From the IMG/VR virus record IMGVR_UViG_3300027770_003655, positions 1-31,983 of that record: a DNA stretch of 31,983 bases; one strand, 5' to 3'. The position numbers and the translations under genes are program-made. The stretch comes from a virus. Below the pieces are notes generated by a model. It worked only from the letters and a program-made list of their open reading frames with translations, was not told the origin of the DNA and ran no database searches. Shown here in pieces: positions 2,939-31,983 of this stretch; the stretch's first letter is position 1; the number at the start of each line of letters is the position of its first letter.

Positions 2939-3625
2939 ATGTCAGATAAAAATGAAGAGATTGTTGATGCAATTGTTCCCGCATCAGAAAAAGTAATAAT
3001 TGGACCTTCTAAGTTATTCAGAGAATTAAAGGAAACAGATAAACCTTATCATCCTTTGCCTCCTGATAATATGAATGACATTTCTTATCCACAATTTTTA
3101 GAACCAAGATGTTCCATTTGTTCTTCGCCTTTTAGAGATTTAGCAGAACACGTATTTCTTGAAAGTGGTAAGAAGCCCCAGTCTGTTATTCAATTTTTTG
3201 CTCATTATTTTGATGCAAAACTTAACTGGATGCAGATTAACACACATATGGAGCAGCATTGTGACTTCAAAAAAATATCAACATCTGGTTTAAAAAACTA
3301 TGAGCAAAGAGAAGAATTAATAGCTCCTTGGATTTTTAGAGAAAATCAATTAGCATTAATAGCTCTTCTTGTTGAGCTTGATGATGTAAGAGGCATGGAT
3401 TGTTCTAAAAATAACGACCTCAAACTTAAAAGAGCTGCAATGGTAGAAAAACTAATAAGCAAAATCTTATATGTCAAAGAACAAAGAGATAATCAAGGAG
3501 TTTTTGCTATCAATATTTTTGAAATTCTTGTTAAATTGCATGAACAAATGGAAAATGAAGGCGATAAGAAAATTATAAGAGATGAAATGCAATTCTTAAG
3601 ACAAAAAATACAAGCTGAGAATTAA
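2939..3625 (+). CDS. Putative terminase small subunit
   Basis: A 228-residue protein that ends in a TAATG overlap with the large terminase gene, the usual place for a small terminase subunit. A zinc-site-like set of ligands is visible: CSIC (Cys58, Cys61) and HMEQHC (His103, His107, Cys108). Between them lies a helical segment (SGKKPQSVIQFFAHYF) that resembles a DNA-binding helix-turn-helix. The C-terminal half is helical and charged, as expected for an oligomerising subunit. Expected role: recognise the viral DNA and present it to the motor. The call rests on position and architecture, not on recognised family identity. ATG 2939 is preferred to the TTG at 2912, which falls inside the terminator stem. 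Confidence 0.6.
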   Translation: MSDKNEEIVDAIVPASEKVIIGPSKLFRELKETDKPYHPLPPDNMNDISYPQFLEPRCSICSSPFRDLAEHVFLESGKKPQSVIQFFAHYFDAKLNWMQINTHMEQHCDFKKISTSGLKNYEQREELIAPWIFRENQLALIALLVELDDVRGMDCSKNNDLKLKRAAMVEKLISKILYVKEQRDNQGVFAINIFEILVKLHEQMENEGDKKIIRDEMQFLRQKIQAEN

Positions 3626-5742
3626 TGAGAAAACCTAACCCTCAAAAAACTCAGCAGAATGATGCAAAATCTCAACTTCTTCAACAAGCATCTGAAGTTG
3701 AAAAGTTTTTTAAAGAATCAGAATATGCTGAAGAGTTTTCTGATGATATTGTTCCTGCAACAAGATCAGAAGTAATCCCCCCTCATCCACCTGAAAAATC
3801 AAGATTCAATCCAGATAGAATTGTTGATATAATTACTTTCATAGAACACCCTTATTTTTGTAATCTTAAACCTTATCCTTGGCAAAAACTTATTCTTAAA
3901 TGTTTTTATATGGGACAAGAAGGAAATACAAATCTTGTAATCAATGAAAAAAAAGAAGAAAGTGGATGTAATGGTTGTGTTTGGAACTATGTCAAAGAGA
4001 ATGAAGATCTATTCTACAAAACAAGAAAAAGCCAAAAACAAATCAAAACTACGTTTTCAGTAGTAAACTCTCCATGCTTAACTTGTACTCGTTTAGATGA
4101 TGAAGTAAGAATAGAAAGATACGAAGCTGCAAAAGAAGAAGCTACAAATCCAGATGCTGAAAGACAAGTTGAAGAATTGTCGCAAAGAGCAGTACTTGAT
4201 AATTTTGAAACAGAAAATGATCTTTTATACTCTGATGAATTTGATCCCAAATTAAGAGTTCAAGTAAAAGAAAAAAGCTCAAAAAGATACAAATTTCAAG
4301 AATTAGTTTTAGTGCTTGGTAGACGTTCAGGAAAATCATTCTTAGTGTCTGCTATGGCACTTTATGAGCTTTATAGACTTATTTCTATGGGACATCCACA
4401 AGCAAGATATGGCTTGATGGAATTTGATGAAATAGTTTTATTGAATGTAGCTCGAAATGAAGAACAGGCAAAGAAAGCTATCTTTTCCAAAATCAAACAA
4501 ACAGTTTTAGCTTCTCCATTCTTTCAACCATATATTGGAAAAGACACTGAACTTGAAATGCGATTTTACACTGAAAATGATGTGAAAGAAAATGAAAGAA
4601 GAGCGTCAAGAAGTTTAAATCCTTTTGCTGGATCTTTGGTTTTAAGATGTGGTTCAAGTAATGCTTCAGGTCTTGTTGGTCTTACTTGTTGGTGTATTAT
4701 CATGGACGAAGTTGCAGCTATGGCAGGAGACAATCCTGATTCTGGTGTTGACTATGCTCTTTATGATGATTTGAAACCTTCTTTAGCTACATTTGGCAAA
4801 GATGGAAAAATGATGATGCTTTCCAACCCTAAAGGGCCTCTTGGATTGCTTTATGATTTGCATGAAAACAGATTAGACGATCCAGCAACTCTTGTTATGA
4901 GATTGCCAACTTGGTTAACTAATCCAAATATTGACAAAGCTTGGTTGGATGATCAAAAAAAGAAAAACCCAGTTGAATTTACAATGCAGTATGGTGCAGA
5001 ATTTGGCGCTGCGTCATCAGATCCTATGTTTGACCAAGACTCAATAAGAAGAATGTTTTCATCTATGAGAATGGTGCCAAGATCAGAGTTTGCCCAGCCT
5101 CATATTGATTATTATTGCCATTTAGATCCAGCAAGAACTTCGGATTACTATGCATTGGCTATTTCACATACAGAAGAAATATATGGTTCAGTAGGGCCTG
5201 ATTTCAAGCCACTTAAAAGAGTAGTCATTGACCACATTCATTTTTGGAATCCTCAAACTAAAAATCAACCTATCTCTGAAAGAGAAGTTGAAAATTACGT
5301 TATTGACTTGCACAAAAGATTTAGATTTAAACAAGTTAGTATTGATCAATGGAATTCACAATCTTCTGTTATCACTCTTCAAAGTAGAGGAGTTCCAATT
5401 ATTGAAAGACAGTTTAATAAAGAATACAAAGAAAAGATTTACACAGAACTTACTCAGCTAATAAGAGAAGATAGAATTGATATATACGATCTTTCAAGTG
5501 GTGCTTATTTAGATACGCAAAATAATAAACATAATCTCAATGAAGTAGAAGAAGCCAAAACTCAATTTTTGTTTTTACAAAAGAAATGGAAAGGTAAAAG
5601 ATATATTATAGAAGCTTTGTCTGGATATAAAGATGATATCTGCGATGCTGTGGCTGCAGTTTGTTACGAAGCTTTAACAAACAGAATTATTACAAGATCT
5701 CCGAGAAATAGAATGGTGAGTTTCGGTGGCAGGTACAGATAG
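3625..5742 (+). CDS. Terminase large subunit (packaging ATPase/nuclease)
   Basis: 705 residues. The ATPase domain has Walker A LGRRSGKS (231-238), Walker B IIMDE (358-362) and a coupling-motif-like MMLSNPKG (397-404). The C-terminal RNase-H-fold nuclease shows its acidic residues in CHLDPART (Asp501), VSIDQWNS (Asp574) and YKDDICDAVAA (Asp670/671, Asp674). It powers DNA translocation through the portal and cuts the concatemer. Unusually, two CxxC pairs (CNGC 115-118 and CLTC 151-154) lie in an insertion before Walker A and look like a zinc finger. Translationally coupled to the gene before it by a 1-base overlap. Confidence 0.95.
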   Translation: MRKPNPQKTQQNDAKSQLLQQASEVEKFFKESEYAEEFSDDIVPATRSEVIPPHPPEKSRFNPDRIVDIITFIEHPYFCNLKPYPWQKLILKCFYMGQEGNTNLVINEKKEESGCNGCVWNYVKENEDLFYKTRKSQKQIKTTFSVVNSPCLTCTRLDDEVRIERYEAAKEEATNPDAERQVEELSQRAVLDNFETENDLLYSDEFDPKLRVQVKEKSSKRYKFQELVLVLGRRSGKSFLVSAMALYELYRLISMGHPQARYGLMEFDEIVLLNVARNEEQAKKAIFSKIKQTVLASPFFQPYIGKDTELEMRFYTENDVKENERRASRSLNPFAGSLVLRCGSSNASGLVGLTCWCIIMDEVAAMAGDNPDSGVDYALYDDLKPSLATFGKDGKMMMLSNPKGPLGLLYDLHENRLDDPATLVMRLPTWLTNPNIDKAWLDDQKKKNPVEFTMQYGAEFGAASSDPMFDQDSIRRMFSSMRMVPRSEFAQPHIDYYCHLDPARTSDYYALAISHTEEIYGSVGPDFKPLKRVVIDHIHFWNPQTKNQPISEREVENYVIDLHKRFRFKQVSIDQWNSQSSVITLQSRGVPIIERQFNKEYKEKIYTELTQLIREDRIDIYDLSSGAYLDTQNNKHNLNEVEEAKTQFLFLQKKWKGKRYIIEALSGYKDDICDAVAAVCYEALTNRIITRSPRNRMVSFGGRYR

Positions 5743-6807: not shown

Positions 6808-7932
6808 ATGATGTATGATTATTTAGTAATTGGCGCTGGTTTATTTGGATCTATTTTTGCATATGAAGCAAATAAATTAGGCAAAAGTGTATTAGTAATA
6901 GAGAAAAGAAATCATATTGGTGGAAATTGTTACACCGAAGAATATGAAGACTATCATATACACACTTACGGTCCACATATTTTTCACACATCCCAAAAAT
7001 ATATATGGGACTATATAAATCAATTTACAGAATTTAATAATTATTCTCACAGAATAAAGTCTAACTATCAAGGCAAACTTTATTCCATGCCTATTAATTT
7101 AATGACTTTGCATCAAGTTTGGCCTGAAATTATTACACCAGAAGATGCTAAAAAGAAAATAGAATCCGAAATTATTCCTTGTGAAAATCCTAAAAACTTA
7201 GAAGAACATATCTTAAGTATGGTTGGCCCCACTTTGTATCAATACTTCATTCATGGATATACAAAGAAACAATGGGGAACAGATCCTAAAAATCTACCAG
7301 CTTCTATTATTAAAAGATTACCCATAAGATATAACTTTAAAGATCGATGGTTTCACGATCATGATATTTACGAAGGTATTCCTGTTAATGGATATACTCC
7401 TATTTTCCACAAGCTTTTAGAAGGCATAGAAACCTTCACTAATATTGATTATTTTGCAGATAGATCGTATTGGGATTCAAAAGCTCATAAAGTTGTTTTT
7501 TCAGGCCAAATTCAACAGTATTTTGAATATATGTTTGGCGATTTAGAATACAGAACATTAGAATTTAACAATTACAAAATACCCAATTCTGATTTTCAAG
7601 GATGTTCAATTGTTAATTATCCTGATCCTGAAACAAGATGGACAAGAATAACTCAACATAGACATTTTGTAAATTCAAAATCATCTAATGATTATGTAAC
7701 TTATGAATACTCAAAAGACTATGACAAAAATAATCCAGATCATATTCCTTACTATCCTGTAAACACGGATAAAAATAATGAAATTTACAGAAAATACAAA
7801 GAATATTTAGAAAACAATCATTCAAATATTATTGTTGGTGGAAGATTAGCTAATTACAGATATTACGATATGGATATGACAATAGGTAATGCATTAGCTA
7901 CCGTAAAGAAAGAATTTGCAGGAATGTATTAA
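6808..7932 (+). CDS. glf: UDP-galactopyranose mutase
   Basis: 374 residues, the normal length for this flavoenzyme, which interconverts UDP-galactopyranose and UDP-galactofuranose, the donor for Galf-containing glycans. Visible family features are the N-terminal FAD-binding Rossmann motif GAGLFG (about residues 8-13), IEKRNHIGGNCY (about 31-42), YGPHIFHT, YTKKQWG, and the C-terminal GRLANYRYYDMD segment that closes the FAD site. The fold appears complete, so the enzyme is probably active. Two ATGs are adjacent (6808, 6811). It sits between unrecognised head-block genes, away from the sugar cassette at 24.5-32 kb, so its product may be needed late or it may have been inserted here. It probably acts in the cytoplasm. 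Confidence 0.95.
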   Translation: MMYDYLVIGAGLFGSIFAYEANKLGKSVLVIEKRNHIGGNCYTEEYEDYHIHTYGPHIFHTSQKYIWDYINQFTEFNNYSHRIKSNYQGKLYSMPINLMTLHQVWPEIITPEDAKKKIESEIIPCENPKNLEEHILSMVGPTLYQYFIHGYTKKQWGTDPKNLPASIIKRLPIRYNFKDRWFHDHDIYEGIPVNGYTPIFHKLLEGIETFTNIDYFADRSYWDSKAHKVVFSGQIQQYFEYMFGDLEYRTLEFNNYKIPNSDFQGCSIVNYPDPETRWTRITQHRHFVNSKSSNDYVTYEYSKDYDKNNPDHIPYYPVNTDKNNEIYRKYKEYLENNHSNIIVGGRLANYRYYDMDMTIGNALATVKKEFAGMY

Positions 7933-14438: not shown

Positions 14439-16778
14439 ATGGCAACAAGAAATTCATTGGCATCAGCAATCAGAACATCGGCGCATTCTGTCACTGGTGA
14501 ATCTATAAAAGGATCTGGATTTAATCAAGATCGAAATTATGCAAGCAGTAGAATAAATCCTGGCTTGGGACCAAGTGTCAGACAAGCTTCTATGAACACT
14601 GTCACTACTTCTCCTAACTTTTATTCTCCATTCCTTACTCCTTCTTCATTTCAAATACCTAATGCACGAAGAGAAGTTTACCTTTGGGCAAACTGGTGGG
14701 TAAACAATGAGCCAAAAGTTGCTGCAGCCATAAACTTTTACACTAATTTCCCTTTTTCAGGTTGGGAATTAGAATGTTCTTCAACTTACGTTAAAGACTA
14801 TTTTGAAAAACTTGTCGAAAAATTAAACTTTCAAAAATGGCTTCCTCAAATTGCTCATACCTATTATCTTTTAGGTGATTCTTTTGTTCTTCTGTCCATT
14901 CAATGTGAAAATTGTAATGGAAGCGGTTGGAACGAAAAGAAAAATGAAGACTGCACTCATGATGGCGCTTCTTGGAAATCTATTTCTGTCTTAAACCCTG
15001 ACAGCGTATTAAAAACACCAGGTATGTTAGACCAAGAAGGCACTTATGTTTATAGGCCAAGTGCAGAAGAAATAAGGGTTGTCAATGAAAGACAACCAAA
15101 AGAAATTTATGATTCAATTCCTGACAGTGTAAAAAGAATGATCTTGAAGGGTGATCCAATTAAGCTAAACCCTTTGTCTATTCATCATTTCAAACACGGT
15201 TCAAATCCATGGGAAGATTATGGTACATCTTTGATTAGGCCATTGTTCCCAATTCTTACATACAAAGATAAGTTACGCCAAGCTCAGTTTATGATTGCTG
15301 ACAGACTTATTCTTCCTATTAAGGTAGTCAAAATTGGTTCTGACACAAGACCGGCATCACAAGAAGATATTGATGGTGTGCAGGACGAACTTGCAGCATT
15401 AGCATCTGATCCTAACTTGACTCTTGTAACTCACCACAATTTTGATCTTGAATGGTACGGAGCTAATAGTAAGTTCTATGTTGTAACCCCTGAATTTGAA
15501 GAGATCAATTCTGAACTTTTAGATGGCCTTATGCTATCAAAAGCTCTCTTGAATGGAGAAGGTCCTACTTATGGCAACGCTCAGGTAGGTCTTATGGCTA
15601 TGGCTCAAAGATTAGAGACATTTAGAAGAGAAGTAGCTCACTGGATTGAACTCAAGATATTTAGACCAGTAGCAGAATGGAATGGATTTGTTGTTGAAGG
15701 TGAAAGAGGGCAAGAAGAAGTTATTTACCCAACAATTAAATTCAATGACTTGCAATTAAAAGATGATTCACAAAAATTGCAAATTATGGCTACTGCAAAT
15801 CAACAAGGCGTTATATCAAACACTTCTTTGATTGAAGCTTTTGGGCTTGATGTTGACCAAGAAATTGAAAGACTTAGATTTGAGCAAGGTGCAAGTTTCA
15901 TGAAAGAAGGGAACTTTGGAGTTCCAAGTTTTTCAATGAATCTTCAATCTGGAGCTGTCACTGGTCAAGGTTTTGCAGGACAAGCAGCACCGCCAGGGGC
16001 AGCTCCTCCAGGTGGTGGAATGCCAGCAATGCCAGGAATGGAAGCTGGTGGAATGATGCCTCCATTAGCCTCTTCTAAGGAAGAAAATTATCGTTTAGCT
16101 TTTTCTGCAATAAAGCAACTATACGATGATGCATTGGAAACAAAAAGTGAGCTTTACGGTAAAAGATATGCATCAAAAAGAATTAAATCAGCAGCGCATG
16201 AAGGTTTCATACAATCAATCATGCCAGTCACAGGAAGGGGCATACATGGACCTTTGCCTGAAAAGTACGATGGTTTTAATAAAACATTAATTCCTGAACT
16301 TCTCGGTGGGTCTATTTGTTCGCCATTAAATATTGAGGCTAAGTTTGAATACAGAATAGCAGCAATCTCAAATGATGAAAATATCAAGATAGCTTTCAAA
16401 CAAAAACAAGAAATGAATCAGCCAAGCTTATATACATCTATTGAAAGGAAACTTTATGGTTTATTGCTTTCCTTAAATATGCCATATTCTTTATTTGCGC
16501 AGTATTCAGCTGGCCCTACTGGTGATTACACATTAGATGCAGCTATTCCCCAATTAGGAATTGGAATAGAAGCAGATGGGGAAATTTGGCATAATAATTT
16601 TGACAAGATTGCAAAAGACAAAAAAAGAGATAGCGAATTAGCAAATAATGGATGGGTTATTTTAAGATTTACTGACAAGGAGCTGAACGATCACCCTAAT
16701 GATGTATTAAACGTAATAATGCAAGGAATTAGAAAAAGAACAGGACAATCTTCTAACCCAGAAGAACAAACATTATAA
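14439..16778 (+). CDS. Portal protein fused to a C-terminal PD-(D/E)XK nuclease domain
   Basis: 779 residues. Residues ~60-485 match a phage portal: YLWANWWVNNEPKVAAAINF near the start of the core, the IHHFKHGSNPWEDYGTSLIR region, then clip/stem-like helices and GPTYGNAQVGL. The portal forms the ring through which DNA enters and leaves the head. An insertion with CENC (156-159), Cys172 and His174 could bind zinc. A Pro/Gly/Met-rich linker (~509-545) leads to residues ~560-779, which end in a DUF559/Vsr-like nuclease. Its signature is Glu669 (SIER), Asp700 (YTLDAAI), Glu711-x-Asp713 (GIEADGE), His718, Arg730-Asp731 and GWVILRF. All expected acidic residues are present. One unbroken frame covers both parts. 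Portal call firm; nuclease domain likely. Confidence 0.9.
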   Translation: MATRNSLASAIRTSAHSVTGESIKGSGFNQDRNYASSRINPGLGPSVRQASMNTVTTSPNFYSPFLTPSSFQIPNARREVYLWANWWVNNEPKVAAAINFYTNFPFSGWELECSSTYVKDYFEKLVEKLNFQKWLPQIAHTYYLLGDSFVLLSIQCENCNGSGWNEKKNEDCTHDGASWKSISVLNPDSVLKTPGMLDQEGTYVYRPSAEEIRVVNERQPKEIYDSIPDSVKRMILKGDPIKLNPLSIHHFKHGSNPWEDYGTSLIRPLFPILTYKDKLRQAQFMIADRLILPIKVVKIGSDTRPASQEDIDGVQDELAALASDPNLTLVTHHNFDLEWYGANSKFYVVTPEFEEINSELLDGLMLSKALLNGEGPTYGNAQVGLMAMAQRLETFRREVAHWIELKIFRPVAEWNGFVVEGERGQEEVIYPTIKFNDLQLKDDSQKLQIMATANQQGVISNTSLIEAFGLDVDQEIERLRFEQGASFMKEGNFGVPSFSMNLQSGAVTGQGFAGQAAPPGAAPPGGGMPAMPGMEAGGMMPPLASSKEENYRLAFSAIKQLYDDALETKSELYGKRYASKRIKSAAHEGFIQSIMPVTGRGIHGPLPEKYDGFNKTLIPELLGGSICSPLNIEAKFEYRIAAISNDENIKIAFKQKQEMNQPSLYTSIERKLYGLLLSLNMPYSLFAQYSAGPTGDYTLDAAIPQLGIGIEADGEIWHNNFDKIAKDKKRDSELANNGWVILRFTDKELNDHPNDVLNVIMQGIRKRTGQSSNPEEQTL

Positions 16779-16810: not shown

Positions 16811-16841
16811 AAACCCGTCGAATTCGACGGGTTTTGTTTTG
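16811..16841 (+). terminator. Rho-independent terminator after portal
   Basis: A perfect 10-bp stem AAACCCGTCG/CGACGGGTTT around loop AATT, followed by GTTTTGTTTT. It lies 32 bases after the portal stop and separates the portal transcript from the protease gene. Confidence 0.85.
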
Positions 16842-16931
16842 TAGGTTTTTAAGGCTTTAATGCAGAACTATTTTTATTAGCCTCAATCCATTAATTAGGT
16901 GGATGTGGATCAAAAAGTAAGGAAAAGTGTA

Positions 16932-19900
16932 ATGAAAAAGGTTGCAAAAGGTGGAGCAATTACTATCAATAGTTTCTTAAATGAAGGTGATAGAAATGTA
17001 GCCAGAACTCACATGCTAAAGACAGCCTCTTCTAATATGAGAGAAGCTGCAAAAATTGGTTTGCAATCATTATATGCTGATCCAAAAGAAGTTTTAGAAA
17101 AATACAAAGATTTTGACATTGTCAAAGAAATGCAGGCTCGTAAAGGAGCTAAATTACTTTGGGTAAGAGCAAGAGCAATTGACGCTGATACAGTTAATGC
17201 TAATGGAGACTATTTTTCAAAAGAAGAACTTCTTAAGGAACATGAAATTAAGGGAGAAAAAATCCCTTCATATAAAACTTTTGAAGGCGTTCCAATTTAC
17301 ACCAACCATAAAAATGACGATATTGAACAAGCTAAAGGAATGGTTGTCTACGCTGAATGGGACGAAAAAGAAAATTGCGTTTATTGCACATTCTTTGTAG
17401 ATGAAGAAGCTTATCCTGACATTGCAAGAAATATTAGAACTGGTGTTATTCATGATGTCTCAATGGGATGTTCAGTAGACTATGGCATTTGTTCTAAGTG
17501 TAAAAATAAAGCTTACACTGAAAAAGATTACTGTGAATGTTTAAAAAAATATAAGGGCAAGACAGATCCTCAATCTGGCAAAAAAGTTTATGAAGAAAAC
17601 TATAAGTTGAAATTCATTGAACTTTCCTGCGTAGGTGATGGTGCTTTTGAAACTTGTGAAATTCAAGAAATTTATGATGTTGATGACGTTTTAAGTGCAG
17701 CAGAAGATTTAGAAAAGAAAGCTAACGAAATTTGTTCAAATATTGTTTTAGCTTTTGATGGGTCTCCTACAAATCCAGCTGAAAGATCGGCATACGAGAA
17801 TTGTTTAAGAACCGCTCAATTTGCCTCAAAAACAGCAATTAAACTTGCTCAAAATGCTGGTACTTTAGTGGGTGGTCCTTTATTAGCTGGACCCGGTGCA
17901 AATCAAAATTCTACAGTAGCTGCAGTTCTTCAAGGTTTAGGTATAGACCCAAGATCAGGACTTAATGTATTAGACTTGATCAATTTGTCATTAAATTTCC
18001 TTGAAGTTGGTGTTATGAATTTATTTGCAAGAAAAGATAATGTTGATCTTACACATGTTGGTAAGATTACTAAAGCAATGGCTGATTTGCAAGGCACCAT
18101 GCAAGACATGATTGACGATGGTGTTGACGTTGGGAGTGGTCAAAGACCACAGCCAATTAATGCAGGACAACAAACTCAACAAGCTCAACAAGCTGTTGCT
18201 CCTGCTCAGAATCCAACAAATGCTAATGTTGGATTAGCAAACTACACTAATACTGGAAATGTTGGAAGAATTATGGATTTTTCAAGTCCAATAGAAACAA
18301 ATCCTGTCGGTGGTGGTGTAGCCTTGGCAAGTTCGAATATAAACTTAGTTTGGGCTTCGAAAGATGGTAAAAGAGAAGTATTTGCCAGTACAAGTAATAA
18401 TGTCAGAGAACCATCAAGCAAAGTTTTAAGACTTACAGAAAATTTATTATCTTTAAAGAATGCACTAAACGATAGTGAAATTCAAAAGAGAGTAGAGACA
18501 GTCATTAGAATTTCTAATGAGAGAAATAAAAACATAAAAACTAATACGCCTATTTTGGCGGGGGGCAGAAATCAAATGGATCATTTTGCAAAAATCGCAT
18601 CAGAGCAAAGAAAAAAGCTTGCTGCTGCTGTTACCATCGACTTTAAGGTTGAAGATGGTTCTGGTAATAGAGTTGTTTTATCTACTGATGGATCTATAAC
18701 TGGATACACTGGCGGAAAAAGAACAACTTGGGAGCCTATTTTAACTGAAAACCAAATCAATATGATGGAAAGTGGTCAAGGTACAAGAGTTGCCGCTGAA
18801 CTTTTAAATGAGTATGGTAAGTTTGTTAAAACTGCTTTGCTTGATGTTAAAGAAAGATTAGAAGATAGAAATACTCAGCTTGATGAAGTTAGATCTGGTG
18901 AAGGCTATGAAGGCCAATCAATATATGACGCTATTTCTGCACAACACAAACCAGAAAACAACGTAACAAGAGAAGAATCTTTGAAAGATAAGCGAACTGG
19001 AAAAGGCGCTGATGATGTCAAAGAAAAATTACTTGCAGATGCTGGTCTTTATGGCAGAAAAGTCAAGAATGAAGATGTTATGAAATCTTTGTTTACATTA
19101 ATTGATGAAGTAAACAAAGGCGTTCCAACAGAAGTTATTGAGAAAAGACTACAAGAATGCAGAACAGATGGTAAAGCTTCTGCTCATGAGATCATGTCTG
19201 CAACAATTAATGCTTTAGGTAAGGCTGTTGTTACTGCAATGGAAACTCCTAATACTATTATGAGAGTTGCTCAAACTCTTGTAAATGAAGAAGCTCTTCC
19301 TGAGATGGTTGAAACAGCTGCTGCTACTGTACCAATGGATGAAGCTAATGCAGAAAAAGCTGAATTCTTCGGAACAGATGAAATGCCTATGGATTCTGTA
19401 ACTGCAGTTCTCAAACAACTTGGTGCTGCTGTAAGTTCTGAGATAACTGCTAAAGATTTATCTGATGCATTGTCAGTTGCAGTTGAAGAAGGCGAAATTA
19501 CAAAAGAAGGCGTTACAAGAATTGCTGAACTTTTGATGGCTGATGTAAATATTCCTGAAGAAGGACTTGGAGTTGAATCAACTCCATCAAAAAATGAAGA
19601 ACTCAAGCAAGCATTAACAAGTGCAGTTGATGGAGACAAGAATCTTATTTCCAAGGAAGACCTGAAGTCTGCAATTTCTGCAATGGCTATGTCTGCAGAA
19701 GACTCTGGTGTAACACCTGATGAAGTGGTCGATACTGTTGATGGTATGCCTGAAAATCAACTTGTAGCAGCTATCAATAGAGCAAAGACAGCTTCCGCAA
19801 CTGATGCAAGATTGAGAGCAAGAGCAAGAAGAGAATTCTGGGGTGTAAAAACTGCATCAACAAAAGACGTCAATAATAATGTAATTGGCTGGCTTGCGGA

Positions 19901-21140
19901 CTACTCTACAAACTTTGACATTTCTACAAAGAAAATTGCTTTAGCGGCTAAGAGACTTTGTGAAGATTACGAAGTTGCTGAAAGATTAGTTGCAAAGGCT
20001 ATTCAAACTAAGAATTCCATGGAAAAAACAGCTGGTATGAAGGTCACTCAGAATAAATCTGAATGTTTGACCTTTGTTTGCAGAGCTGAAGATTTAGATG
20101 GTGTTTCTCCATCAGATGAAGGTTTTGAAGAAGCGTTCAAGCAAAAAGCAATCTCTGTTCTTCAAGGTCATGGTTTCACCGTTGACCCAGGCACTTTTAC
20201 ATTTACAGATCTTAATGTTTCCAGCAGTGGAGATATTACTGCAAGAGTTTCGACTGCTGTAAGTAAATCATTTGATGTTGATGAAGATACTGAAATGAAT
20301 TCCGAAATGCCAACTGAAGGGCTAATTGAAGGCCCTGCAGAGAGCGAGATTGTCATGACTGATGCAGCAAGAGTTGCAAGAAGAGAAAGAAGAACACAGC
20401 TTTTAGCAAGATACGCACAGGTTCCAGGAATGGGAGCTGCACCAGCCGGACCTGCTGCTGGACCAGTAGATCCTAATCTTGGTATTGGGGCTGCACCAGC
20501 TGCAACTGATCCTGGTATTTTAGGAATGACAGGCGGAATGCCAGAAGGTGTTTCAGACGAAGATCCAATGGTAGGGGACACAGAACCAGGCGAAAAGAAA
20601 CCTTGGGGAAGTATTTGTCCAGTTTGTGGAGCAGATGATGTAAATATATCAGAATCAAGTGCTGATTGTCAATCTTGCGGAACAACCTATAAAATTCTTC
20701 AATCAATTGAACTTATTTCACTTGGTGAAAAAGGCAAAGATGGTACTGAAGAAATTGGTGAAGATCTCATGAGCGGTTTGGGAGAAATGACAGCTCCAGC
20801 TCAGGCACCAATGGCTGGCGCAGAGGCTGGTATGGGTGGCGGCATGGGTGCTCCTGCTGCTCCAGGAATGGCACCTGTAGCTAATTTCAAATCAATGTTT
20901 AGATTAGCTACAACTGTAGATTCTGATGTTTATCTCAGAACTGCTATGCCTGATTTTGACAAAGCAACAGAGAAGAGATTACCAGTTGGTATGATCTGTC
21001 CAAGTTGTGGTTCAAGAGAAGCACACAAGGTAAGCAATAACACATTCTGCTATGATTGTGGAAATTATTCAAAAACAACAGTTGCATCTAACAAGAAGAA
21101 CCCTTCGAAGCTTGATGTCACTATTACATGGATTGATTAA
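16932..21140 (+). CDS. Prohead maturation protease fused to a ~1,150-residue scaffold-like, zinc-ribbon extension
   Basis: 1,402 residues from ATG 16932 (AAGGA 8 bases upstream); a GTG at 16899 would add 11. Residues ~75-245 resemble a herpesvirus-assemblin/HK97-type capsid protease: VPIYTNHKND with His126 and IHDVSMGCS with Ser177 as likely catalytic pair. A CxxC-x10-CxC zinc site (Cys187, 190, 201, 203) follows. The middle is long, helical, Ala/Glu-rich with a Gln/Ala linker (~405-435) and looks scaffold-like. Near the C-terminus are two zinc ribbons (CPVC...CQSC, 1229-1249; CPSC...CYDC, 1356-1376) separated by a Gly/Ala/Met/Pro-rich linker. KTAS occurs at 30-33, 952-955 and 973-976. Such proteases are usually a few hundred residues long. 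It may be processed into protease, core and zinc-ribbon products. The protease call is likely; the rest is inference. Confidence 0.8.
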   Translation: MKKVAKGGAITINSFLNEGDRNVARTHMLKTASSNMREAAKIGLQSLYADPKEVLEKYKDFDIVKEMQARKGAKLLWVRARAIDADTVNANGDYFSKEELLKEHEIKGEKIPSYKTFEGVPIYTNHKNDDIEQAKGMVVYAEWDEKENCVYCTFFVDEEAYPDIARNIRTGVIHDVSMGCSVDYGICSKCKNKAYTEKDYCECLKKYKGKTDPQSGKKVYEENYKLKFIELSCVGDGAFETCEIQEIYDVDDVLSAAEDLEKKANEICSNIVLAFDGSPTNPAERSAYENCLRTAQFASKTAIKLAQNAGTLVGGPLLAGPGANQNSTVAAVLQGLGIDPRSGLNVLDLINLSLNFLEVGVMNLFARKDNVDLTHVGKITKAMADLQGTMQDMIDDGVDVGSGQRPQPINAGQQTQQAQQAVAPAQNPTNANVGLANYTNTGNVGRIMDFSSPIETNPVGGGVALASSNINLVWASKDGKREVFASTSNNVREPSSKVLRLTENLLSLKNALNDSEIQKRVETVIRISNERNKNIKTNTPILAGGRNQMDHFAKIASEQRKKLAAAVTIDFKVEDGSGNRVVLSTDGSITGYTGGKRTTWEPILTENQINMMESGQGTRVAAELLNEYGKFVKTALLDVKERLEDRNTQLDEVRSGEGYEGQSIYDAISAQHKPENNVTREESLKDKRTGKGADDVKEKLLADAGLYGRKVKNEDVMKSLFTLIDEVNKGVPTEVIEKRLQECRTDGKASAHEIMSATINALGKAVVTAMETPNTIMRVAQTLVNEEALPEMVETAAATVPMDEANAEKAEFFGTDEMPMDSVTAVLKQLGAAVSSEITAKDLSDALSVAVEEGEITKEGVTRIAELLMADVNIPEEGLGVESTPSKNEELKQALTSAVDGDKNLISKEDLKSAISAMAMSAEDSGVTPDEVVDTVDGMPENQLVAAINRAKTASATDARLRARARREFWGVKTASTKDVNNNVIGWLADYSTNFDISTKKIALAAKRLCEDYEVAERLVAKAIQTKNSMEKTAGMKVTQNKSECLTFVCRAEDLDGVSPSDEGFEEAFKQKAISVLQGHGFTVDPGTFTFTDLNVSSSGDITARVSTAVSKSFDVDEDTEMNSEMPTEGLIEGPAESEIVMTDAARVARRERRTQLLARYAQVPGMGAAPAGPAAGPVDPNLGIGAAPAATDPGILGMTGGMPEGVSDEDPMVGDTEPGEKKPWGSICPVCGADDVNISESSADCQSCGTTYKILQSIELISLGEKGKDGTEEIGEDLMSGLGEMTAPAQAPMAGAEAGMGGGMGAPAAPGMAPVANFKSMFRLATTVDSDVYLRTAMPDFDKATEKRLPVGMICPSCGSREAHKVSNNTFCYDCGNYSKTTVASNKKNPSKLDVTITWID

Positions 21141-21272: not shown

Positions 21273-22892
21273 ATGGAAAAAATGAAGAAAGCCACTAATC
21301 AAGATAAATTCAAGGCCCTTCGTCTTGCTGAAATTAAGCTCACTGACCAAGAAGATTACAAAAATTGCGTAAATGACATGACTAAAACAGCTTCCCTTAA
21401 TAAGGCTGAAGCACTGGTTGTAGCAAACGCAATTAGATCTAAGTATCTTCCAAATGTGCTCAGGGAAGCTGGATTTGAGCCAGTAGATGTAAAACCTATG
21501 GTTAACACCGATTCAGAGGCAGAAGAGACTACAGACTTCGCAGACGATGAAAATAACGACGATATGGAAGATATGCATCATTTTGAAGATGATGAAGACG
21601 ATTTAGAAGAAGATTTTGAAGAAGACTCAGACGAAGTAGACGATGAAGAAACAGCCAAATTTGAAATAGAAGTTCCCGCTGATATGGTTGACGCCGCACA
21701 AAAAGCTGTGCAAGAGGCGCTCGACAATCTTCTTGGCGGAGAAGATGACATGGATATGGACGATGAAGACGACATGGAAGATGAAGATGAAGATCTTGAT
21801 GAAGACATGGACGAAGATGAAGACATGGACATGAAAGATGAAGATATGGAAGAAGATTCCGAGCCAAAAATGCACACATCAAGTACTGGAGTTAATAAAA
21901 TGACAAAACAAGCATTGGCAGCTCGCCGTGCTCAAAGAGAAGCAATCTTAAAGAAGATCGCTTCTGAAGAAGAGAAGTATCCGGCGTCTGGCACATTTAA
22001 GTATAACGAAGATTTATATAACATGGAAGGTGAAGTAGATTACCCTTCTATGACATTGGAAGGCAGTGAAGGAAACAGTCTTAAGGAACAAAACCCATCA
22101 TGGGCAGAGCAAAAAGTTCCTACAAATAATGTTGATTCATTACAATTTCCAGATGTTACAAAGCCTATGAAATTTGAGGGATCTGGAAATGGATCTTTAG
22201 AATACACTGTAGACTGGGATTCATTGGAAACTCCTTCAGAAGGAATGGAAGATGTCAACATGTTTGATGTCCCAACTCAAATGCCTTCAATGCCACACAA
22301 AACCACAGTTCCACAAGCAAGAGTTGCTTCTTACGGAATGGAAGCAGAATCTAATATGAAGCATGCCGTTCAATGTTCAGCATGTGGACACAAAACAATG
22401 ATGACACAAGCTGAAATGGATTCAGACAAAACTAAGTGTCCTAATTGCGAAGGCGAAGAACATTCTGATGGCGATAATGAAGAAGTTGAATCTGATGTTC
22501 AAGTTAAACCAATGGGTCAATATGTTGATATCAAAACTTCTGCTGCATTGGATACTGCAAGAATCAAGACAGCTTATTCTTGCTCAAGCAAGTTAGCACT
22601 TGCTGGAATCATAGAAAGTTCAGACATTGATTCATACGCTGAGCAAATGCTTAACGACGAACTCAAAGCTGATGCAATGATTAGACAAACTAAACTTTTA
22701 CTTTCCGCTGCTCAAGCATCAACTGAAAGAGTTGCTGCAGCTGCTGCTGAAAGAATGAGTGTTAGAACCGCTTCTACAAACGGAATTTCTACATCCCCTG
22801 CATTTACTGGCAGCTCTGCTGCTAATAGTGCATCTCTTGACATTCAAGGTGCCTTAAGAGGCACTTGGACAATGCCAACAATCGAGGATTAG
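21273..22892 (+). CDS. Acidic scaffold-like head protein with zinc ribbon
   Basis: 539 residues, no family recognised. Residues 1-70 are helical and contain KTAS (38-41). Two very acidic low-complexity tracts follow (about 80-127 and 157-198, nearly all Asp/Glu/Met) around a small folded segment EIEVPADMVDAAQKAVQEAL. A basic helical stretch AARRAQREAILKKIA (216-230) comes next. A zinc ribbon (CSAC 368-371, CPNC 389-392) lies near the middle of the second half. The Ala-rich helical C-terminus carries RTAS (498-501). It lies just upstream of the decoration-like and major capsid genes, where scaffolds usually sit. The acidic tracts may mimic DNA and the [KR]TAS sites may be cleaved; both are inference. 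Confidence 0.7.
   Translation: MEKMKKATNQDKFKALRLAEIKLTDQEDYKNCVNDMTKTASLNKAEALVVANAIRSKYLPNVLREAGFEPVDVKPMVNTDSEAEETTDFADDENNDDMEDMHHFEDDEDDLEEDFEEDSDEVDDEETAKFEIEVPADMVDAAQKAVQEALDNLLGGEDDMDMDDEDDMEDEDEDLDEDMDEDEDMDMKDEDMEEDSEPKMHTSSTGVNKMTKQALAARRAQREAILKKIASEEEKYPASGTFKYNEDLYNMEGEVDYPSMTLEGSEGNSLKEQNPSWAEQKVPTNNVDSLQFPDVTKPMKFEGSGNGSLEYTVDWDSLETPSEGMEDVNMFDVPTQMPSMPHKTTVPQARVASYGMEAESNMKHAVQCSACGHKTMMTQAEMDSDKTKCPNCEGEEHSDGDNEEVESDVQVKPMGQYVDIKTSAALDTARIKTAYSCSSKLALAGIIESSDIDSYAEQMLNDELKADAMIRQTKLLLSAAQASTERVAAAAAERMSVRTASTNGISTSPAFTGSSAANSASLDIQGALRGTWTMPTIED
21741..21861 (+). repeat. Degenerate GA(T/C)-rich coding repeat
   Basis: Imperfect tandem units of the type GATGAAGACATGGAC encode the Asp/Glu/Met tract of the scaffold-like protein. 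The repeat is purine-rich on the coding strand and generates long spurious antisense reading frames. Confidence 0.7.
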
Positions 22893-23629: not shown

Positions 23630-24484
23630 ATGTCAATGATTAAAAGAAATACAAATGAGCAAAGAGAAGCCATTATTGCAATGGCTCTCGAGACCCCAGA
23701 AGGTCGTACAGCTCTCGCACAAGCTATGGTCGAGCCAATCAAGACTTCCTTGATGTACCAAGCTATTGGTAGAAAGCTTCTCATGGTCGATGAGCTCCCA
23801 CAAGGCGCTCTTGCAAGATATGAGAGAGATGTAGCTGTCAAGTCCTATGTCATTCCTAAGAGAGGCGCAGTCCCAACAGCTGAGGTTGAAGCAGAAGAAC
23901 TTATTGTTCCAACAATTGAACTTGCTGCACATCCACAAATCAGACTTAATGAGATTCGCCAAAGAAGATTCTACATCGTCGATAGAGCTCAAGTCCGTGC
24001 TAAGGACTCCCTCCAAAGACAAGAAGATACAGAAGTCTTCAAGGTTATCAATGCCGGTGTACCAACCGACCAATCAATCTCCGTTTCTGGTACTCTTCAA
24101 CCAGAGAATATCAACCTCGCGTTGACTCTCATTGAAGAGCACGAGTTAATCGGTGCTAAGGTTGTTCTTCACCCACAAAGATACAAGGATATCAGAAACT
24201 GGGGCAAGGAATTCTTCGATGAGGCAACTCAAAGAGATATCCTTATGACTGGTCTCTACGGACATATTTATTCCGCAGACATCCACGTTTCCACCATGGT
24301 TCCTAAGAACTCAGTTTACGTTCTTGCACCAGCACAGTTCTGTGGCGCACTTCCAGTTCGCCAAGACATTACTGTTCTCCCAGCAGACGATCCAAAGAGA
24401 CTTAGACTTGGATGGGTTGTTTACGAAGAGCTCGGTTTTGCTCTTATCAACGACTACGCAGTTTCAAGAATCACTGTTTCCTAA
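23630..24484 (+). CDS. Major capsid protein (HK97-fold type)
   Basis: 284 residues behind a strong ribosome site (AAGGAGA, 9 bases upstream). The pattern fits an HK97-fold capsid subunit: a short N-terminal helical arm (NEQREAIIAMALETPEGRTA), an extended-loop region with VIPKRGAVPTAE, spine-helix-like segments around 118-170 (RAKDSLQRQEDTEVFKVINA; INLALTLIEEHELIGA), an A-domain with YKDIRNW and a C-terminal beta region (GWVVYEELGFALINDYAVSR). No long pro-arm is present. Codon use differs sharply from neighbours: CTC, GTC, ATC, AAG, GAG and TCC are common where other genes use TTA, GTT, AAA and GAA, as expected for the most abundant phage protein. It is the last plus-strand gene before a terminator. 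Confidence 0.85.
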   Translation: MSMIKRNTNEQREAIIAMALETPEGRTALAQAMVEPIKTSLMYQAIGRKLLMVDELPQGALARYERDVAVKSYVIPKRGAVPTAEVEAEELIVPTIELAAHPQIRLNEIRQRRFYIVDRAQVRAKDSLQRQEDTEVFKVINAGVPTDQSISVSGTLQPENINLALTLIEEHELIGAKVVLHPQRYKDIRNWGKEFFDEATQRDILMTGLYGHIYSADIHVSTMVPKNSVYVLAPAQFCGALPVRQDITVLPADDPKRLRLGWVVYEELGFALINDYAVSRITVS

Positions 24485-24550: not shown

Positions 24551-24841
24551 CTAAAAAGGAACCTTTCCTCTGATGATGTCAAATAGCATAATCCAATCTG
24601 CGACTTTGGCTTTGATTGGATCTTTGAATGTTGCTGGTTTATTTTTTTCAAAAAAGAAATGACCAGACCACGCAAATGGATAGACTATAAATGGAGCAAA
24701 GATCAACAAGATGTAAAGCTTACAATATATACATCCTACAAACCACACAATGGTAAATAATTGACCTAAAACATGCAACCGTCTACATACTTTATTTTGA
24801 TGTAAAGTAAGATACATTGCGTAATAATCTTTCATATTCAT
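24551..24841 (-). CDS. Mpo1/DUF962-like membrane protein
   Basis: 96 residues. The family pattern is good: YYAMYLTLHQNKVCRRLH at the start (His14, His23), then two hydrophobic membrane segments (about 27-39 and 42-58), then WSGHFFFEKNKPATFKDP (His61) and a final amphipathic helix with DWIMLFDIIRG. Yeast Mpo1 of this family is an iron-dependent dioxygenase acting on 2-hydroxy fatty acids; bacterial members are mostly uncharacterised. The ATG overlaps the TGA of the kinase-like gene before it (ATGA), so the two are translationally coupled. An upstream GTG at 24850 is possible but less likely. A role in modifying membrane or lipid-linked acyl groups is conceivable, but only inference. Confidence 0.8.
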   Translation of the reverse strand: MNMKDYYAMYLTLHQNKVCRRLHVLGQLFTIVWFVGCIYCKLYILLIFAPFIVYPFAWSGHFFFEKNKPATFKDPIKAKVADWIMLFDIIRGKVPF

Positions 24842-25605
24842 ATAGTACACACACCCTTTTTTTGAACAACTACTGTTGCACAGTATTGAGCATATTTAAT
24901 TGATTTGACAATATTGTTAGTTCTTACATATTCACATGCTAAAGCTGCTATAAAAGTATCGCCTGCTCCAGAAACGTCTTTAATTTCTACTTTTTTTACT
25001 GGATAAACAATACCTTGATATTCACAACCATCACCTGATCTGGTAATAATTAATTTATCAACAATATTGAGTTTTTCAAGTGTATGCTGAGTTCTGTCAT
25101 ATTCTATGTGATTTATTTTTATGAATGAAACATTTTTACACCAATTGCCTAAAAGTTTCTTTGTATCTAAAAAGACATTCTTGTTATTTCTTGCGATAAA
25201 ATCTATGTCTTCTTCGCTTAAAAAACCTTTACAATAATCACTTACAATAACTGCATCATAGTAAACACCCTCATAAAAATTATCCTTAATTTCATTAAGT
25301 ATACCTTTATCAATACTTGAAGCCTTGTCATTTGTATCAACTCGAAGCAAGAGAGAGTTTGTTCTTTCATCAACATATCTTGTTTTTACAATCTCTTCTT
25401 TTTGTGTGATAAGAAATGGCTCAGATCCAATGACTTTTACATTTGACTTAACGTTTAAAGCCATTCCTCCATTTTCAGTACTTCTTTCTGGATTGAAGAT
25501 GGGTATTGGACCTTCCGGAGCTAACCTATACACAAAACCGTAATTAAAAATGTCACTACAAGAATCACCAACAATTAATATTTTAGAATTAGAATAATCT
25601 TTCAT
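24838..25605 (-). CDS. PfkB-family sugar kinase, heptose-7-phosphate-kinase-like
   Basis: 255 residues. The opening KILIVGDSCSDIFNYGFVYR followed by LAPEGPIPIFNPE matches the start of the HldE/RfaE kinase domain (ILVVGD-x-D, then SPEAPVPV). KTRYVDERTNSLLLRVD and the C-terminal DVSGAGDTFIAALA (210-223, catalytic Asp216) agree with a PfkB kinase that phosphorylates a sugar hydroxyl. The family domain is usually ~310-320 residues. Here the part between GGMALNVKSN (46-55) and KTRYV is far shorter, losing much of the region after the GG motif, so activity or substrate may differ. AAAAAGG lies upstream of ATG. The TGA stop overlaps the next gene. Confidence 0.8.
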   Translation of the reverse strand: MKDYSNSKILIVGDSCSDIFNYGFVYRLAPEGPIPIFNPERSTENGGMALNVKSNVKVIGSEPFLITQKEEIVKTRYVDERTNSLLLRVDTNDKASSIDKGILNEIKDNFYEGVYYDAVIVSDYCKGFLSEEDIDFIARNNKNVFLDTKKLLGNWCKNVSFIKINHIEYDRTQHTLEKLNIVDKLIITRSGDGCEYQGIVYPVKKVEIKDVSGAGDTFIAALACEYVRTNNIVKSIKYAQYCATVVVQKKGVCTI

Positions 25606-25644
25606 TATAGTAGCCTTTTTCTATTATACCGTATAAAATGTATA
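25606..25644. promoter_or_regulatory. Divergent promoter-like palindrome
   Basis: The 39-base gap between divergent genes contains the palindrome TTATAC-c-GTATAA (25624-25636). It supplies a consensus-like TATAAT on the minus strand (25628-25623) and TATAAA on the plus strand. No clear -35 elements are seen, so this is a candidate shared core promoter only. Confidence 0.35.
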
Positions 25645-26604
25645 ATGAATTTTATGAAGAATATACTTATTACAGGAATAAATGGGTCAGGAGCAACTTA
25701 TTTAGCTGAATTTCTTTCAACTATACCAGATGTTAAAATTCAAGGCATTTCAAGATGGCACACTGATAGAAAAAACAAACCTGGAGTTTTTTCAAAAGTA
25801 GAAATATTCGAATGTGATCTTACCGATCTTGGAAGTGTCATCAGAACATTAGAAATAGTTAAACCTGATGTGATTTTTCATTTGGCTTCTAATGCAAATG
25901 TTAAATTATCTTTTACTACACCAATTTCTGTTTTCAACAATAACGTGAATGGTACTTTAAATCTCCTTGAAGCTCTGAGAATTTTAAACCAAAAACCCCT
26001 GATTCAATTTTGCGGAACATCTGAAGTTTACGGACAGGTCAAAGAAGATGAAATTCCAATCAAGGAATCTCAAAGTATTGACCCTGTTAATGTCTATGCT
26101 ATTAGTAAATTGACACAAGAAAAATTAGTAAAATCTTATTTTAATTCTTATAATATTCCTTGTGTTATAACCAGAGCCTTTGGATATATAAACCCAAGAA
26201 GACCTGATATTTTTTCAAGTGCTTTTGCTAAACAAATAGTTGATATTGAAAGAGGAAATCAAGATGTTTTGTATCACGGCAATTTGGATTCTGTTCGTAC
26301 TTTATTAGATGTAAGAGATATTGTGGAAGCTTACTGGATAGCAGCAGAAAAATGTGATTTAGGAGAAGCTTATAATATAGGATCAACAGTTCCAGTTAAG
26401 GTTGGTGATTTTTTAGAAGAACTTAAAAAACAAGCCAAATGTAAAATTGTGACAAAAGAAAATCCTGATTTACTTCGCCCAGTAGATGTCACCTTGCAAA
26501 TTCCAGATGTATCTAAGTTTGCAAATAAAACAGGATTTCTTCCCAAATATTCTTTAGAGAATAGTGTAAAGTTGCTGTTAAACTATTATCGTTCCCAGAA
26601 TTAA
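25645..26604 (+). CDS. NAD(P)-dependent sugar dehydratase, GDP-mannose 4,6-dehydratase-like
   Basis: 319 residues, extended short-chain dehydrogenase fold. The nucleotide-binding GINGSGATYLAEFL (11-24) resembles the GITGQDGSYLAEFL start of GDP-mannose 4,6-dehydratase. FCGTSEVYG gives the Thr125/Glu127 dehydratase pair, YAISK the catalytic Tyr151 and Lys155. RTLLDVRDIVEAYW and LLRPVDVTLQIPDVSKF are typical of GMD/RMD proteins. Expected reaction: GDP-mannose to GDP-4-keto-6-deoxymannose, the entry step for fucose, rhamnose and colitose sugars. A second ATG (25654) just before the first strand may be the real start. It is the only plus-strand gene of the cassette, and its stop overlaps that of the convergent ColD-like gene by 4 bases. 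Confidence 0.85.
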   Translation: MNFMKNILITGINGSGATYLAEFLSTIPDVKIQGISRWHTDRKNKPGVFSKVEIFECDLTDLGSVIRTLEIVKPDVIFHLASNANVKLSFTTPISVFNNNVNGTLNLLEALRILNQKPLIQFCGTSEVYGQVKEDEIPIKESQSIDPVNVYAISKLTQEKLVKSYFNSYNIPCVITRAFGYINPRRPDIFSSAFAKQIVDIERGNQDVLYHGNLDSVRTLLDVRDIVEAYWIAAEKCDLGEAYNIGSTVPVKVGDFLEELKKQAKCKIVTKENPDLLRPVDVTLQIPDVSKFANKTGFLPKYSLENSVKLLLNYYRSQN

Positions 26605-27761
26605 TTCAGTACTTCTAATAACTTGATAATTTTTTCGTATTCTAATCCAGGATAGTTTCCAATATACCAAGAGTAATTGTGTATGTGCTCAATTATTGGG
26701 AAGTTTGAAAAATCTTTGTAAGCCGATTTAAAAAATGGCTGTCTCATTTGATTTCCACCACCCGACAAACCTCTTCTAAATTCAATACCATTTTCTCTTA
26801 GTTTATTTTCTAATTCATTTCTTAGATTAATGTTATTTTCTTTTAGAATTACAATGAACGCATAATTACAATTACCTTCTGTATCAATAGCAACATGATA
26901 TTTGTCAGGATTTAAATTTGAAATAAATAAATCAAAATTATCTTTTCTTTCTTGATTTTTTGCGTCAAGTTTTTTAAGTTGAGACAAACCAATAACAGCA
27001 TTGATTTCTGTGCATCTAAAATTATGAGCTGGTCTAAGAAAAATAAAATCTGGATTCAAATCAGGATTAGAGTCAATTGCCTGTTGTCTCATAGAAACAT
27101 CGGTCATTTCTCTTGTCATACCGTGAGATCTTAAAGCACGACAAACTTGGTAAAATTCCCAGTTGTTTGTGCTTATCATTCCACCTTCTATTGTTGACAT
27201 ATGATGAGCAAAATAAAAACTGAAATTACTTGCAAAGCCAAAATTTCCTACTTTACATCCTTGAAATGTTGTTCCGTGTGATTCGCAAACATCTTCAATC
27301 AATAAAATATTTTTATCTTCACAAATTTTTAACAACTCATCTGTCAAACCGTTGATGCCTAAGACATGAGTAAGGAAGATAGCTTTTGTCTCAGGAGTGA
27401 TTGCTTTTTTAAGCTTTTCAATATCAAATGATAAATTTGTAAAATTCACATCAACAAAAACAAGTTTATGGCCAGCAAATAATACTGATGAAATATCGGA
27501 AATCCAAGTCAATGGTGGAACAATAATTTCTCCTTCACCAATAATATGTGCGAGAGCAAGCATGGTTAATTCATTTGCAGATGCTCCAGAATTGACCATA
27601 AGATTGTATTTTGTTCCAAGCCAGTCGCCCCAAGCATTTTCAAATTCTAAAACTTTTGGCCCGTTTGTAAGTTTTGGGATTTTATTTTGAGAAAGAAAAA
27701 TAATAACTGAATTAATATCTTCTTTATCTATATTGTCATTCATTAATGGTAAATAAAACAT
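26601..27761 (-). CDS. ColD-like PLP-dependent 3-dehydratase (DegT/DnrJ/EryC1 family)
   Basis: 386 residues, the usual length for this aminotransferase fold. NSGASANELTMLAL (57-70), the Pro-Pro-Leu-Thr-Trp segment and LLIEDVCESHG (153-163, Asp157) build the PLP site. At the place of the Schiff-base lysine (normally SFYATK or similar) the sequence is SFYFAHHMSTIEGG (181-194), with His187 instead of Lys. That substitution is the hallmark of ColD (GDP-4-keto-6-deoxymannose 3-dehydratase) and of RfbH, which remove the C3 hydroxyl to make 3,6-dideoxyhexoses. The surrounding STIEGG favours ColD, as does the GMD-like neighbour. AAGGTG precedes ATG. Downstream of the E1 pair by 12 bases, so probably co-transcribed. 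Confidence 0.88.
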   Translation of the reverse strand: MFYLPLMNDNIDKEDINSVIIFLSQNKIPKLTNGPKVLEFENAWGDWLGTKYNLMVNSGASANELTMLALAHIIGEGEIIVPPLTWISDISSVLFAGHKLVFVDVNFTNLSFDIEKLKKAITPETKAIFLTHVLGINGLTDELLKICEDKNILLIEDVCESHGTTFQGCKVGNFGFASNFSFYFAHHMSTIEGGMISTNNWEFYQVCRALRSHGMTREMTDVSMRQQAIDSNPDLNPDFIFLRPAHNFRCTEINAVIGLSQLKKLDAKNQERKDNFDLFISNLNPDKYHVAIDTEGNCNYAFIVILKENNINLRNELENKLRENGIEFRRGLSGGGNQMRQPFFKSAYKDFSNFPIIEHIHNYSWYIGNYPGLEYEKIIKLLEVLN

Positions 27762-27773
27762 ATTTCACCTTAT

Positions 27774-29503: not shown

Positions 29504-29504
29504 A

Positions 29505-30708: not shown

Positions 30709-30720
30709 TTTAGTATCCTT

Positions 30721-31677: not shown

Positions 31678-31686
31678 TTTTGTTCC

Positions 31687-31983
31687 TTAATGAAATACAT
31701 TATACCTTTTATTAATTAAATTTTTATTTTCTAAGTACCAATCAATTGTTTTATTGATGCCTTCTTTTAAAGAATATTTATGCGTGAAACCAAAACTTTT
31801 TGCTCGATCCATATCCAAAATTCTTATAGGATCACCTGTCGCTGCGTCAGTTTTGTATACTATTTCTTTAAAAAATCTGCTGGCTACAATTTCAGCAATT
31901 TCACTAATAGCCACGCCAGAACCACTTCCTAAATTCAATGGATTATTGATTTTGTTTTCTACTGCAAAAAGCATACCTCTAGC
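31687..31983 (-). CDS. C-terminal part of a second fucose-synthase-like SDR (5' end cut by window edge)
   Basis: The frame is open to the right edge (99 codons visible, reading ARGMLFAVENKINNPLNLGS from the edge), so the N-terminal Rossmann part lies outside. The NLGSGSGVAISEIAEIVASR segment, GDPIRILDMDRAKSFGF and the closing YSLKEGINKTIDWYLENK are the C-terminal substrate-binding part of GDP-fucose synthase-type SDRs. The internal Met at 31974 is not a start. It is the first visible gene of the leftward cassette, 9 bases from the next, and looks like a paralogue of that gene. Confidence 0.85.
   Translation of the reverse strand, partial: ARGMLFAVENKINNPLNLGSGSGVAISEIAEIVASRFFKEIVYKTDAATGDPIRILDMDRAKSFGFTHKYSLKEGINKTIDWYLENKNLINKRYNVFH

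What the first reader, a model, noticed from the sequence alone, without database searches (positions are those of the whole stretch)
14439..16778. Portal protein carries its own C-terminal PD-(D/E)XK nuclease
One unbroken frame joins a complete portal (residues ~60-485), a Pro/Gly/Met linker and a DUF559/Vsr-like domain with Glu669, Asp700, Glu711-x-Asp713, His718 and GWVILRF. A nuclease tethered to each of 12 portal subunits would sit on the DNA path. It could nick during packaging or genome-end formation, cut host or rival DNA on ejection, or act in head-full sensing alongside the terminase nuclease. I know of no described role for such a fusion, though I cannot check databases.
Basis: partly seen in the sequence, partly recalled or inferred. 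Interest (0 to 1): 0.8.

Follow-up and report, generated by a model that had tools for sequence, protein, structure and literature searches.

The report
Phage portal protein carrying a nuclease
In a lineage of giant bacterial viruses, the ring protein through which viral DNA enters and leaves the virus head carries, in the same chain, a DNA-cutting enzyme domain that has been kept intact over a long time; the DNA gate therefore seems to have its own built-in nuclease, whose job is still unknown.

Summary
Window 14439-16778 (+) is one unbroken 779-aa frame: a portal protein (residues about 60-489), a disordered Gly/Pro/Met linker (490-544), a fast-evolving middle region (545-655) and a C-terminal nuclease domain (656-770). 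The predicted nuclease fold matches Vsr, I-Bth0305I and DUF559 proteins (EDxHD branch of PD-(D/E)XK); the portal part matches solved portals at Z 15-19.

It is not an assembly error: 60 distinct ORFs from metagenomic viral contigs (up to 441 kb) share it, down to 40% overall identity. Six putative active-site residues are invariant in 51 of 51 distinct nuclease domains, dN/dS is about 0.14, and portal and nuclease were inherited together. Phage-G-like portals (about 30% identical) lack it.

The nuclease follows the crown, so by homology it lies inside the capsid, not in the channel. The terminase nuclease triad is intact. The domain is neither mobile nor polymorphic, which argues against an active homing element or a MuF-type toxin. 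Most likely it acts on phage DNA at the portal vertex during packaging or head completion (about 0.4); a cargo nuclease ejected into the host is the main rival (about 0.25). No earlier report was found in the open library searched.

The parts
14439..16778 (+). Fusion gene: portal protein with C-terminal nuclease, 779 aa
   Evidence: One open frame; same architecture in 60 distinct related ORFs
14616..15905 (+). Portal part, residues 60-489 (wing, stem, clip, stem, wing, crown helices)
   Evidence: Portal_Mu, PHROG portal families, model aligned with solved portals over 73-441, Z 15-19.5
15906..16070 (+). Gly/Pro/Met/Ala linker, residues 490-544, predicted disordered
   Evidence: pLDDT under 50 over 482-544; low identity among relatives
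16071..16403 (+). Middle region, residues 545-655, fast-evolving, partly helical, fold not resolved
   Evidence: dN/dS about 0.35; low pLDDT in much of it
16404..16748 (+). Nuclease domain, residues 656-770, Vsr/EDxHD/DUF559 type
   Evidence: DUF559, 3r3p by sequence, fold matches, dN/dS about 0.14
16443..16619 (+). Putative active-site codons: E669 16443-16445, D700 16536-16538, E711 16569-16571, D713 16575-16577, H718 16590-16592, D727 16617-16619
   Evidence: Invariant in 51 of 51 distinct nuclease domains
16811..16834 (+). Terminator-like hairpin after the fusion gene
   Evidence: 10-pair stem followed by a T-rich tail
3625..5742 (+). Terminase large subunit with intact nuclease Asp triad (context)
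   Evidence: PHROG terminase; triad conserved in relatives
16899..21140 (+). Head maturation protease domain with a very long C-terminal extension (context)
   Evidence: PHROG 18299 head maturation protease over 97-252
23630..24484 (+). Major head protein (context)
   Evidence: PHROG 2522

Best explanation
Shown by sequence: a jumbo-phage portal protein with a C-terminal Vsr/EDxHD-type nuclease domain on a flexible linker, inherited as one unit. Inferred from homology: the nuclease enters the head with the portal ring and hangs from the crown into the capsid interior. Inferred and uncertain: it is a selective (structure- or site-specific) nuclease that acts on the phage's own DNA at the portal vertex during packaging or head completion, nicking or trimming branched, flapped or terminal DNA, beside the terminase nuclease. 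It would be a covalent counterpart of packaging-associated nucleases that other phages make as separate proteins (T4 gp49 bound to portal gp20; T4 gp4).
For: Invariant putative active site in 51 of 51 domains and dN/dS near that of the portal mean the catalytic centre is under selection. Portal and nuclease co-inherited: distance correlation 0.94, one strong conflict. Always in the head/packaging module, fused in 60 distinct ORFs. Six contigs of 300-441 kb each have one DUF559 domain, the portal one. Precedents: portal-bound gp49 resolvase releases stalled branched DNA in T4 (PMC9958956); gp4, a TnsA-like REase-fold nuclease of the T4 virion, is needed for packaging (PMC7824862). Fold kin include mismatch-nicking Vsr.
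Against: No activity data. A lumen-side nuclease is on the wrong side of the terminase to debranch DNA before entry, as gp49 does. A RusA-like resolvase is present in four of six fused contigs (two above cut-off), so the portal nuclease is not the only junction-cutting candidate. Related phage-G-like portals do without it, so it is not a general packaging need.
Confidence: 0.4

Rival explanations
1. Cargo nuclease: fusion to the portal is a way to load the enzyme into the head; the maturation protease frees it there and it leaves with the DNA to act in the new host (host DNA breakdown, competitor exclusion or repair of the entering genome).
For: Nuclease is on the lumen side of the portal by homology. 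K/R-x-A-S/T/N motifs lie at 48 and at 552/576 in many relatives, flanking the portal core, and K/R-x-A-S/T is enriched in head-region proteins (23 against 8.4 expected; positions). Head protease gene is next door. Portal-linked MuF proteins with nuclease domains have been proposed to be delivered (PMC5576092).
Against: The motifs are not shown to be protease sites; enrichment is weak in most single relatives' proteins and one portal copy (304) is inside the portal core. No ejection data. No obvious means of sparing phage DNA.
Confidence: 0.25
2. Homing endonuclease remnant or active selfish element captured by the portal gene.
For: Closest solved relative is the phage homing endonuclease I-Bth0305I. 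Portal and terminase genes of the lineage also carry inteins, those of the portals with LAGLIDADG domains, so homing elements do target these genes.
Against: No patchy distribution at or above 40% identity, trees agree, not within an intron or intein, and the putative active site is kept without visible mobility. It can still be the evolutionary origin.
Confidence: 0.1
3. Catalytically silent or purely structural/DNA-binding domain, for example a lumen-side DNA sensor for the full head.
For: REase folds can be reused for binding; a domain on the crown is well placed to sense DNA pressure.
Against: All six putative catalytic residues invariant in 51 of 51.
Confidence: 0.1
4. MuF-type polymorphic toxin.
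For: MuF toxins are encoded next to portal genes and over half have nuclease domains (PMC5576092).
Against: No MuF domain in the protein, no variety of C-terminal domains in the lineage, no immunity-type ORF downstream.
Confidence: 0.04
5. Assembly chimera or annotation artefact.
For: Metagenomic contig.
Against: 60 distinct ORFs from many metagenomes with the same architecture.
Confidence: 0.01

Closest known systems
Bacillus phage G portal gp14 and IMG/VR relatives (L228-L235)
   Same: Same portal family, about 30% identical, Pro/Gly-rich C-terminal tail
   Different: Ends in the tail; no nuclease domain
I-Bth0305I (EDxHD homing endonuclease), Vsr and DUF559 proteins such as NGO0050
   Same: Fold and active-site layout
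   Different: Here fixed to a portal, vertically inherited, with no visible mobility
T4 gp49 (endonuclease VII) bound to portal gp20
   Same: A nuclease held at the portal during packaging (PMC9958956)
   Different: Separate protein, unrelated fold, acts on branched DNA outside the head
T4 gp4 head-completion nuclease
   Same: REase-fold virion nuclease needed for packaging (PMC7824862)
   Different: TnsA-like, separate protein, not fused to the portal
MuF polymorphic toxins
   Same: Portal-associated, often nuclease domains (PMC5576092)
   Different: No MuF domain, not polymorphic, no immunity gene

Membership tests
Tailed-phage portal protein | Sequence profile match | tested here: met
   Portal_Mu 40.4 bits against 23.9; PHROG 16240 5e-36
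Tailed-phage portal protein | Portal fold | tested here: met
   Z 15-19.5 to many solved portals, about 270-325 residues aligned
Tailed-phage portal protein | Gene in terminase/protease/head-protein module | tested here: met
   Terminase, protease and major head protein in the window
Tailed-phage portal protein | Dodecameric ring at one vertex | not testable with these tools
   Needs microscopy
Vsr/EDxHD/DUF559 nuclease superfamily | Sequence profile match | tested here: met
   DUF559 33.3 bits against 20.6
Vsr/EDxHD/DUF559 nuclease superfamily | Fold | tested here: met
   3hrl Z 11.8, 3r3p 11.6, 1cw0 9.6
Vsr/EDxHD/DUF559 nuclease superfamily | Conserved E, D, E-x-D, H, D residues | tested here: met
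   51 of 51 distinct domains
Vsr/EDxHD/DUF559 nuclease superfamily | DNA cleavage | not testable with these tools
   Needs an assay
EDxHD homing endonuclease | Mobile: patchy distribution, independent of the host gene's tree | tested here: not met
   Co-inherited with the portal; no empty site at or above 40% identity
EDxHD homing endonuclease | Extended modular DNA-binding region beside the catalytic domain | tested here: inconclusive
   Middle region 545-655 has no Pfam match and an unresolved fold
MuF polymorphic toxin | MuF domain | tested here: not met
   No MuF match in Pfam
MuF polymorphic toxin | Variable C-terminal toxin and adjacent immunity gene | tested here: not met
   Same domain throughout the lineage; terminator-like hairpin then the protease gene downstream
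Sole phage Holliday junction resolvase | No other resolvase in the genome | tested here: not met
   RusA-like matches in four of six fused contigs, two above cut-off; RuvC absent and Endo VII none above cut-off

The most novel reading that the evidence does not exclude
A DNA gate with its own nuclease ring: up to twelve tethered nucleases on the inner side of the portal that process the packaged genome, or that are clipped off at maturation and ejected with the DNA as one of the first enzymes to enter the host. Either would be a new enzymatic role for a portal protein.
Probability: 0.5. Interest if true: 0.8.

Novelty: new variant of a known kind. Interest (0 to 1): 0.6.

Why it matters
Portal proteins are usually treated as conduits and pressure sensors without enzymatic activity. 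A deep lineage of jumbo phages has kept an apparently active nuclease covalently on the portal for as far back as the lineage can be traced. That makes two questions testable: whether some packaging machines need a second nuclease inside the head, and whether portals can load enzymes into virions. It also gives a sequence tag (portal plus EADGEIWH) for recognising the lineage.

Tried and rejected
Chimera or misassembly: rejected, 60 distinct ORFs with the same architecture. Free nuclease from an internal start: no in-frame ATG with a convincing ribosome-binding site seen in 16050-16430 (reading, not tested further). Portal nuclease as replacement for the terminase nuclease: rejected, triad intact. 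As the only resolvase: rejected, RusA found; an apparent swap with RuvC, present in phage G, did not hold because the other unfused G-like contigs searched lack RuvC too. T7 endonuclease I: none above cut-off. Relatives in cellular genomes: one free-standing archaeal protein with a NUDIX-like C-terminal part. Named phages: the nuclease part resembles only domains annotated in helicases and methylase neighbourhoods. Papers on portal-nuclease fusions: none in the open library; subscription journals could not be searched.

Full report
Observation. Pfam finds Portal_Mu over residues 219-470 and DUF559 over 668-764, both above their curated cut-offs; PHROGs finds portal families. The best solved relative of the C-terminal part by sequence is the catalytic domain of the phage homing endonuclease I-Bth0305I.

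Structure. A model of residues 541-779 built on 28 relatives is confident in the nuclease region (10-residue means mostly 80-93) but not in much of the middle region. Its best matches are NGO0050 3hrl (Z 11.8, rmsd 1.8 over 93 residues), I-Bth0305I 3r3p (Z 11.6) and Vsr 1cw0 (Z 9.6). The full-length model (mean pLDDT 67) aligns residues 73-441 with solved portals at Z 15-19.5 and has a disordered stretch at 482-544. The nuclease therefore follows the crown. In T4 the crown, wing and stem are inside the capsid (PMC9958956), so the domain should be inside the head; this is inference from homology.

Distribution. Five scans of viral contigs and domain searches of all ORFs in the loci give 60 distinct ORFs with portal and nuclease in one frame, on contigs up to 441 kb. 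Seven more portal ORFs are cut by a contig end before the nuclease would begin. The only relative at or above 40% identity that breaks the rule, contig 3300012000_000088 (L151/L209), has an in-frame TGA in the linker followed at once by the rest of the frame; this may be an error, readthrough or a natural split. Portals of phage G and its relatives, about 30% identical, and those of LR745208 and Tunturi_5 end without a nuclease. The domain was gained on the branch leading to this lineage, or lost in the others.

Selection and inheritance. In 51 distinct nuclease domains E669, D700, E711, D713, H718 and D727 never change. Median dN/dS is 0.09 in the portal, 0.14 in the nuclease and 0.35-0.40 in middle region and linker (dS is high for many pairs, so these are rough). 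Portal and nuclease distances correlate at 0.94, 24 of 43 splits are shared, and one of 16 well-supported nuclease splits conflicts with a well-supported portal split. The two parts have travelled together; the nuclease is not an actively moving element.

Genome context. The terminase keeps its Asp triad in the relatives aligned, so the portal nuclease is additional. Six contigs of 300-441 kb each hold one DUF559 domain, on the portal. None has RuvC, and Endo VII gives only one match, below cut-off, but four hold RusA-like matches, two above cut-off. These contigs may be incomplete. Downstream of the fusion come a terminator-like hairpin and the head protease gene, not an immunity-type ORF.

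Mechanism. The evidence shows a conserved, presumably active nuclease carried by the portal. It does not show what is cut. I favour action on the phage's own DNA at the portal vertex, because the domain is invariant in kind and vertically inherited, and because other phages recruit separate nucleases to the same machine: T4 gp49 at gp20 and gp4. The lumen position speaks against gp49-like debranching outside the head, and for processing of DNA that has entered or for a cargo role. For the cargo role, K/R-x-A-S-like tetrapeptides lie on both sides of the portal core (48; 552 and 576) in many relatives and are enriched in head-region proteins of the window; whether they are protease sites is untested and the evidence is weak.

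Novelty. Both domains belong to known families. Their fusion was not found in the papers that could be searched, but that library is partial and domain-architecture databases were not available. I rate it a new variant of a known kind.

Noticed in passing
L120:1833-5357, L126:1086-5471, L127:215-5191, L226:3101-6652: Portal genes of the same lineage carry intein-like inserts (one, two, three and one), LAGLIDADG domains in the three that were scanned; all keep the C-terminal nuclease.
   Followed up: partly
L245, L246 and L250 (terminase genes of contigs 3300007171_000004 and 3300032116_000001): Terminase large-subunit frames of 1077 and 1085 codons match the window's terminase in two separated pieces, as an intein would give.
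   Followed up: no
L151:7660-7680 (also L122, L209): In-frame TGA in the Ala/Pro linker separates portal (565 codons) from middle region plus nuclease (219 codons): error, readthrough or split gene.
   Followed up: partly
L227:5677-8724: A phage-G-like portal of 1016 codons whose C-terminal part resembles phage G gp15, the gene after the portal in phage G, with Cys/His motifs; by eye only, no PHROG match.
   Followed up: partly
window 2065-24484, e.g. residues 48 and 576 of the portal; 41, 963 and 984 of the 16899 protein: K/R-x-A-S/T tetrapeptides are enriched in head-region proteins (23 against 8.4 in shuffles; 1 against 1.5 in the sugar genes); possible maturation protease sites.
   Followed up: partly
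window 16899-21140: A 1413-aa protein with a head protease domain near its start and a very long, mostly unmatched C-terminal extension ending in zinc-ribbon-like Cys motifs.
   Followed up: no
window 6808-7932 and 24838-31974: A gene that looks like UDP-galactopyranose mutase lies inside the head module, and a block of sugar-nucleotide and surface-glycan-like genes, mostly on the minus strand, follows the major head protein (names from reading the sequences).
   Followed up: no
window 21273-22892: Acidic, scaffold-like protein with a CxxC-type zinc motif that weakly matches phrog_559 (HNH endonuclease), the same family that weakly matches the portal's nuclease, at another part of the profile.
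   Followed up: no
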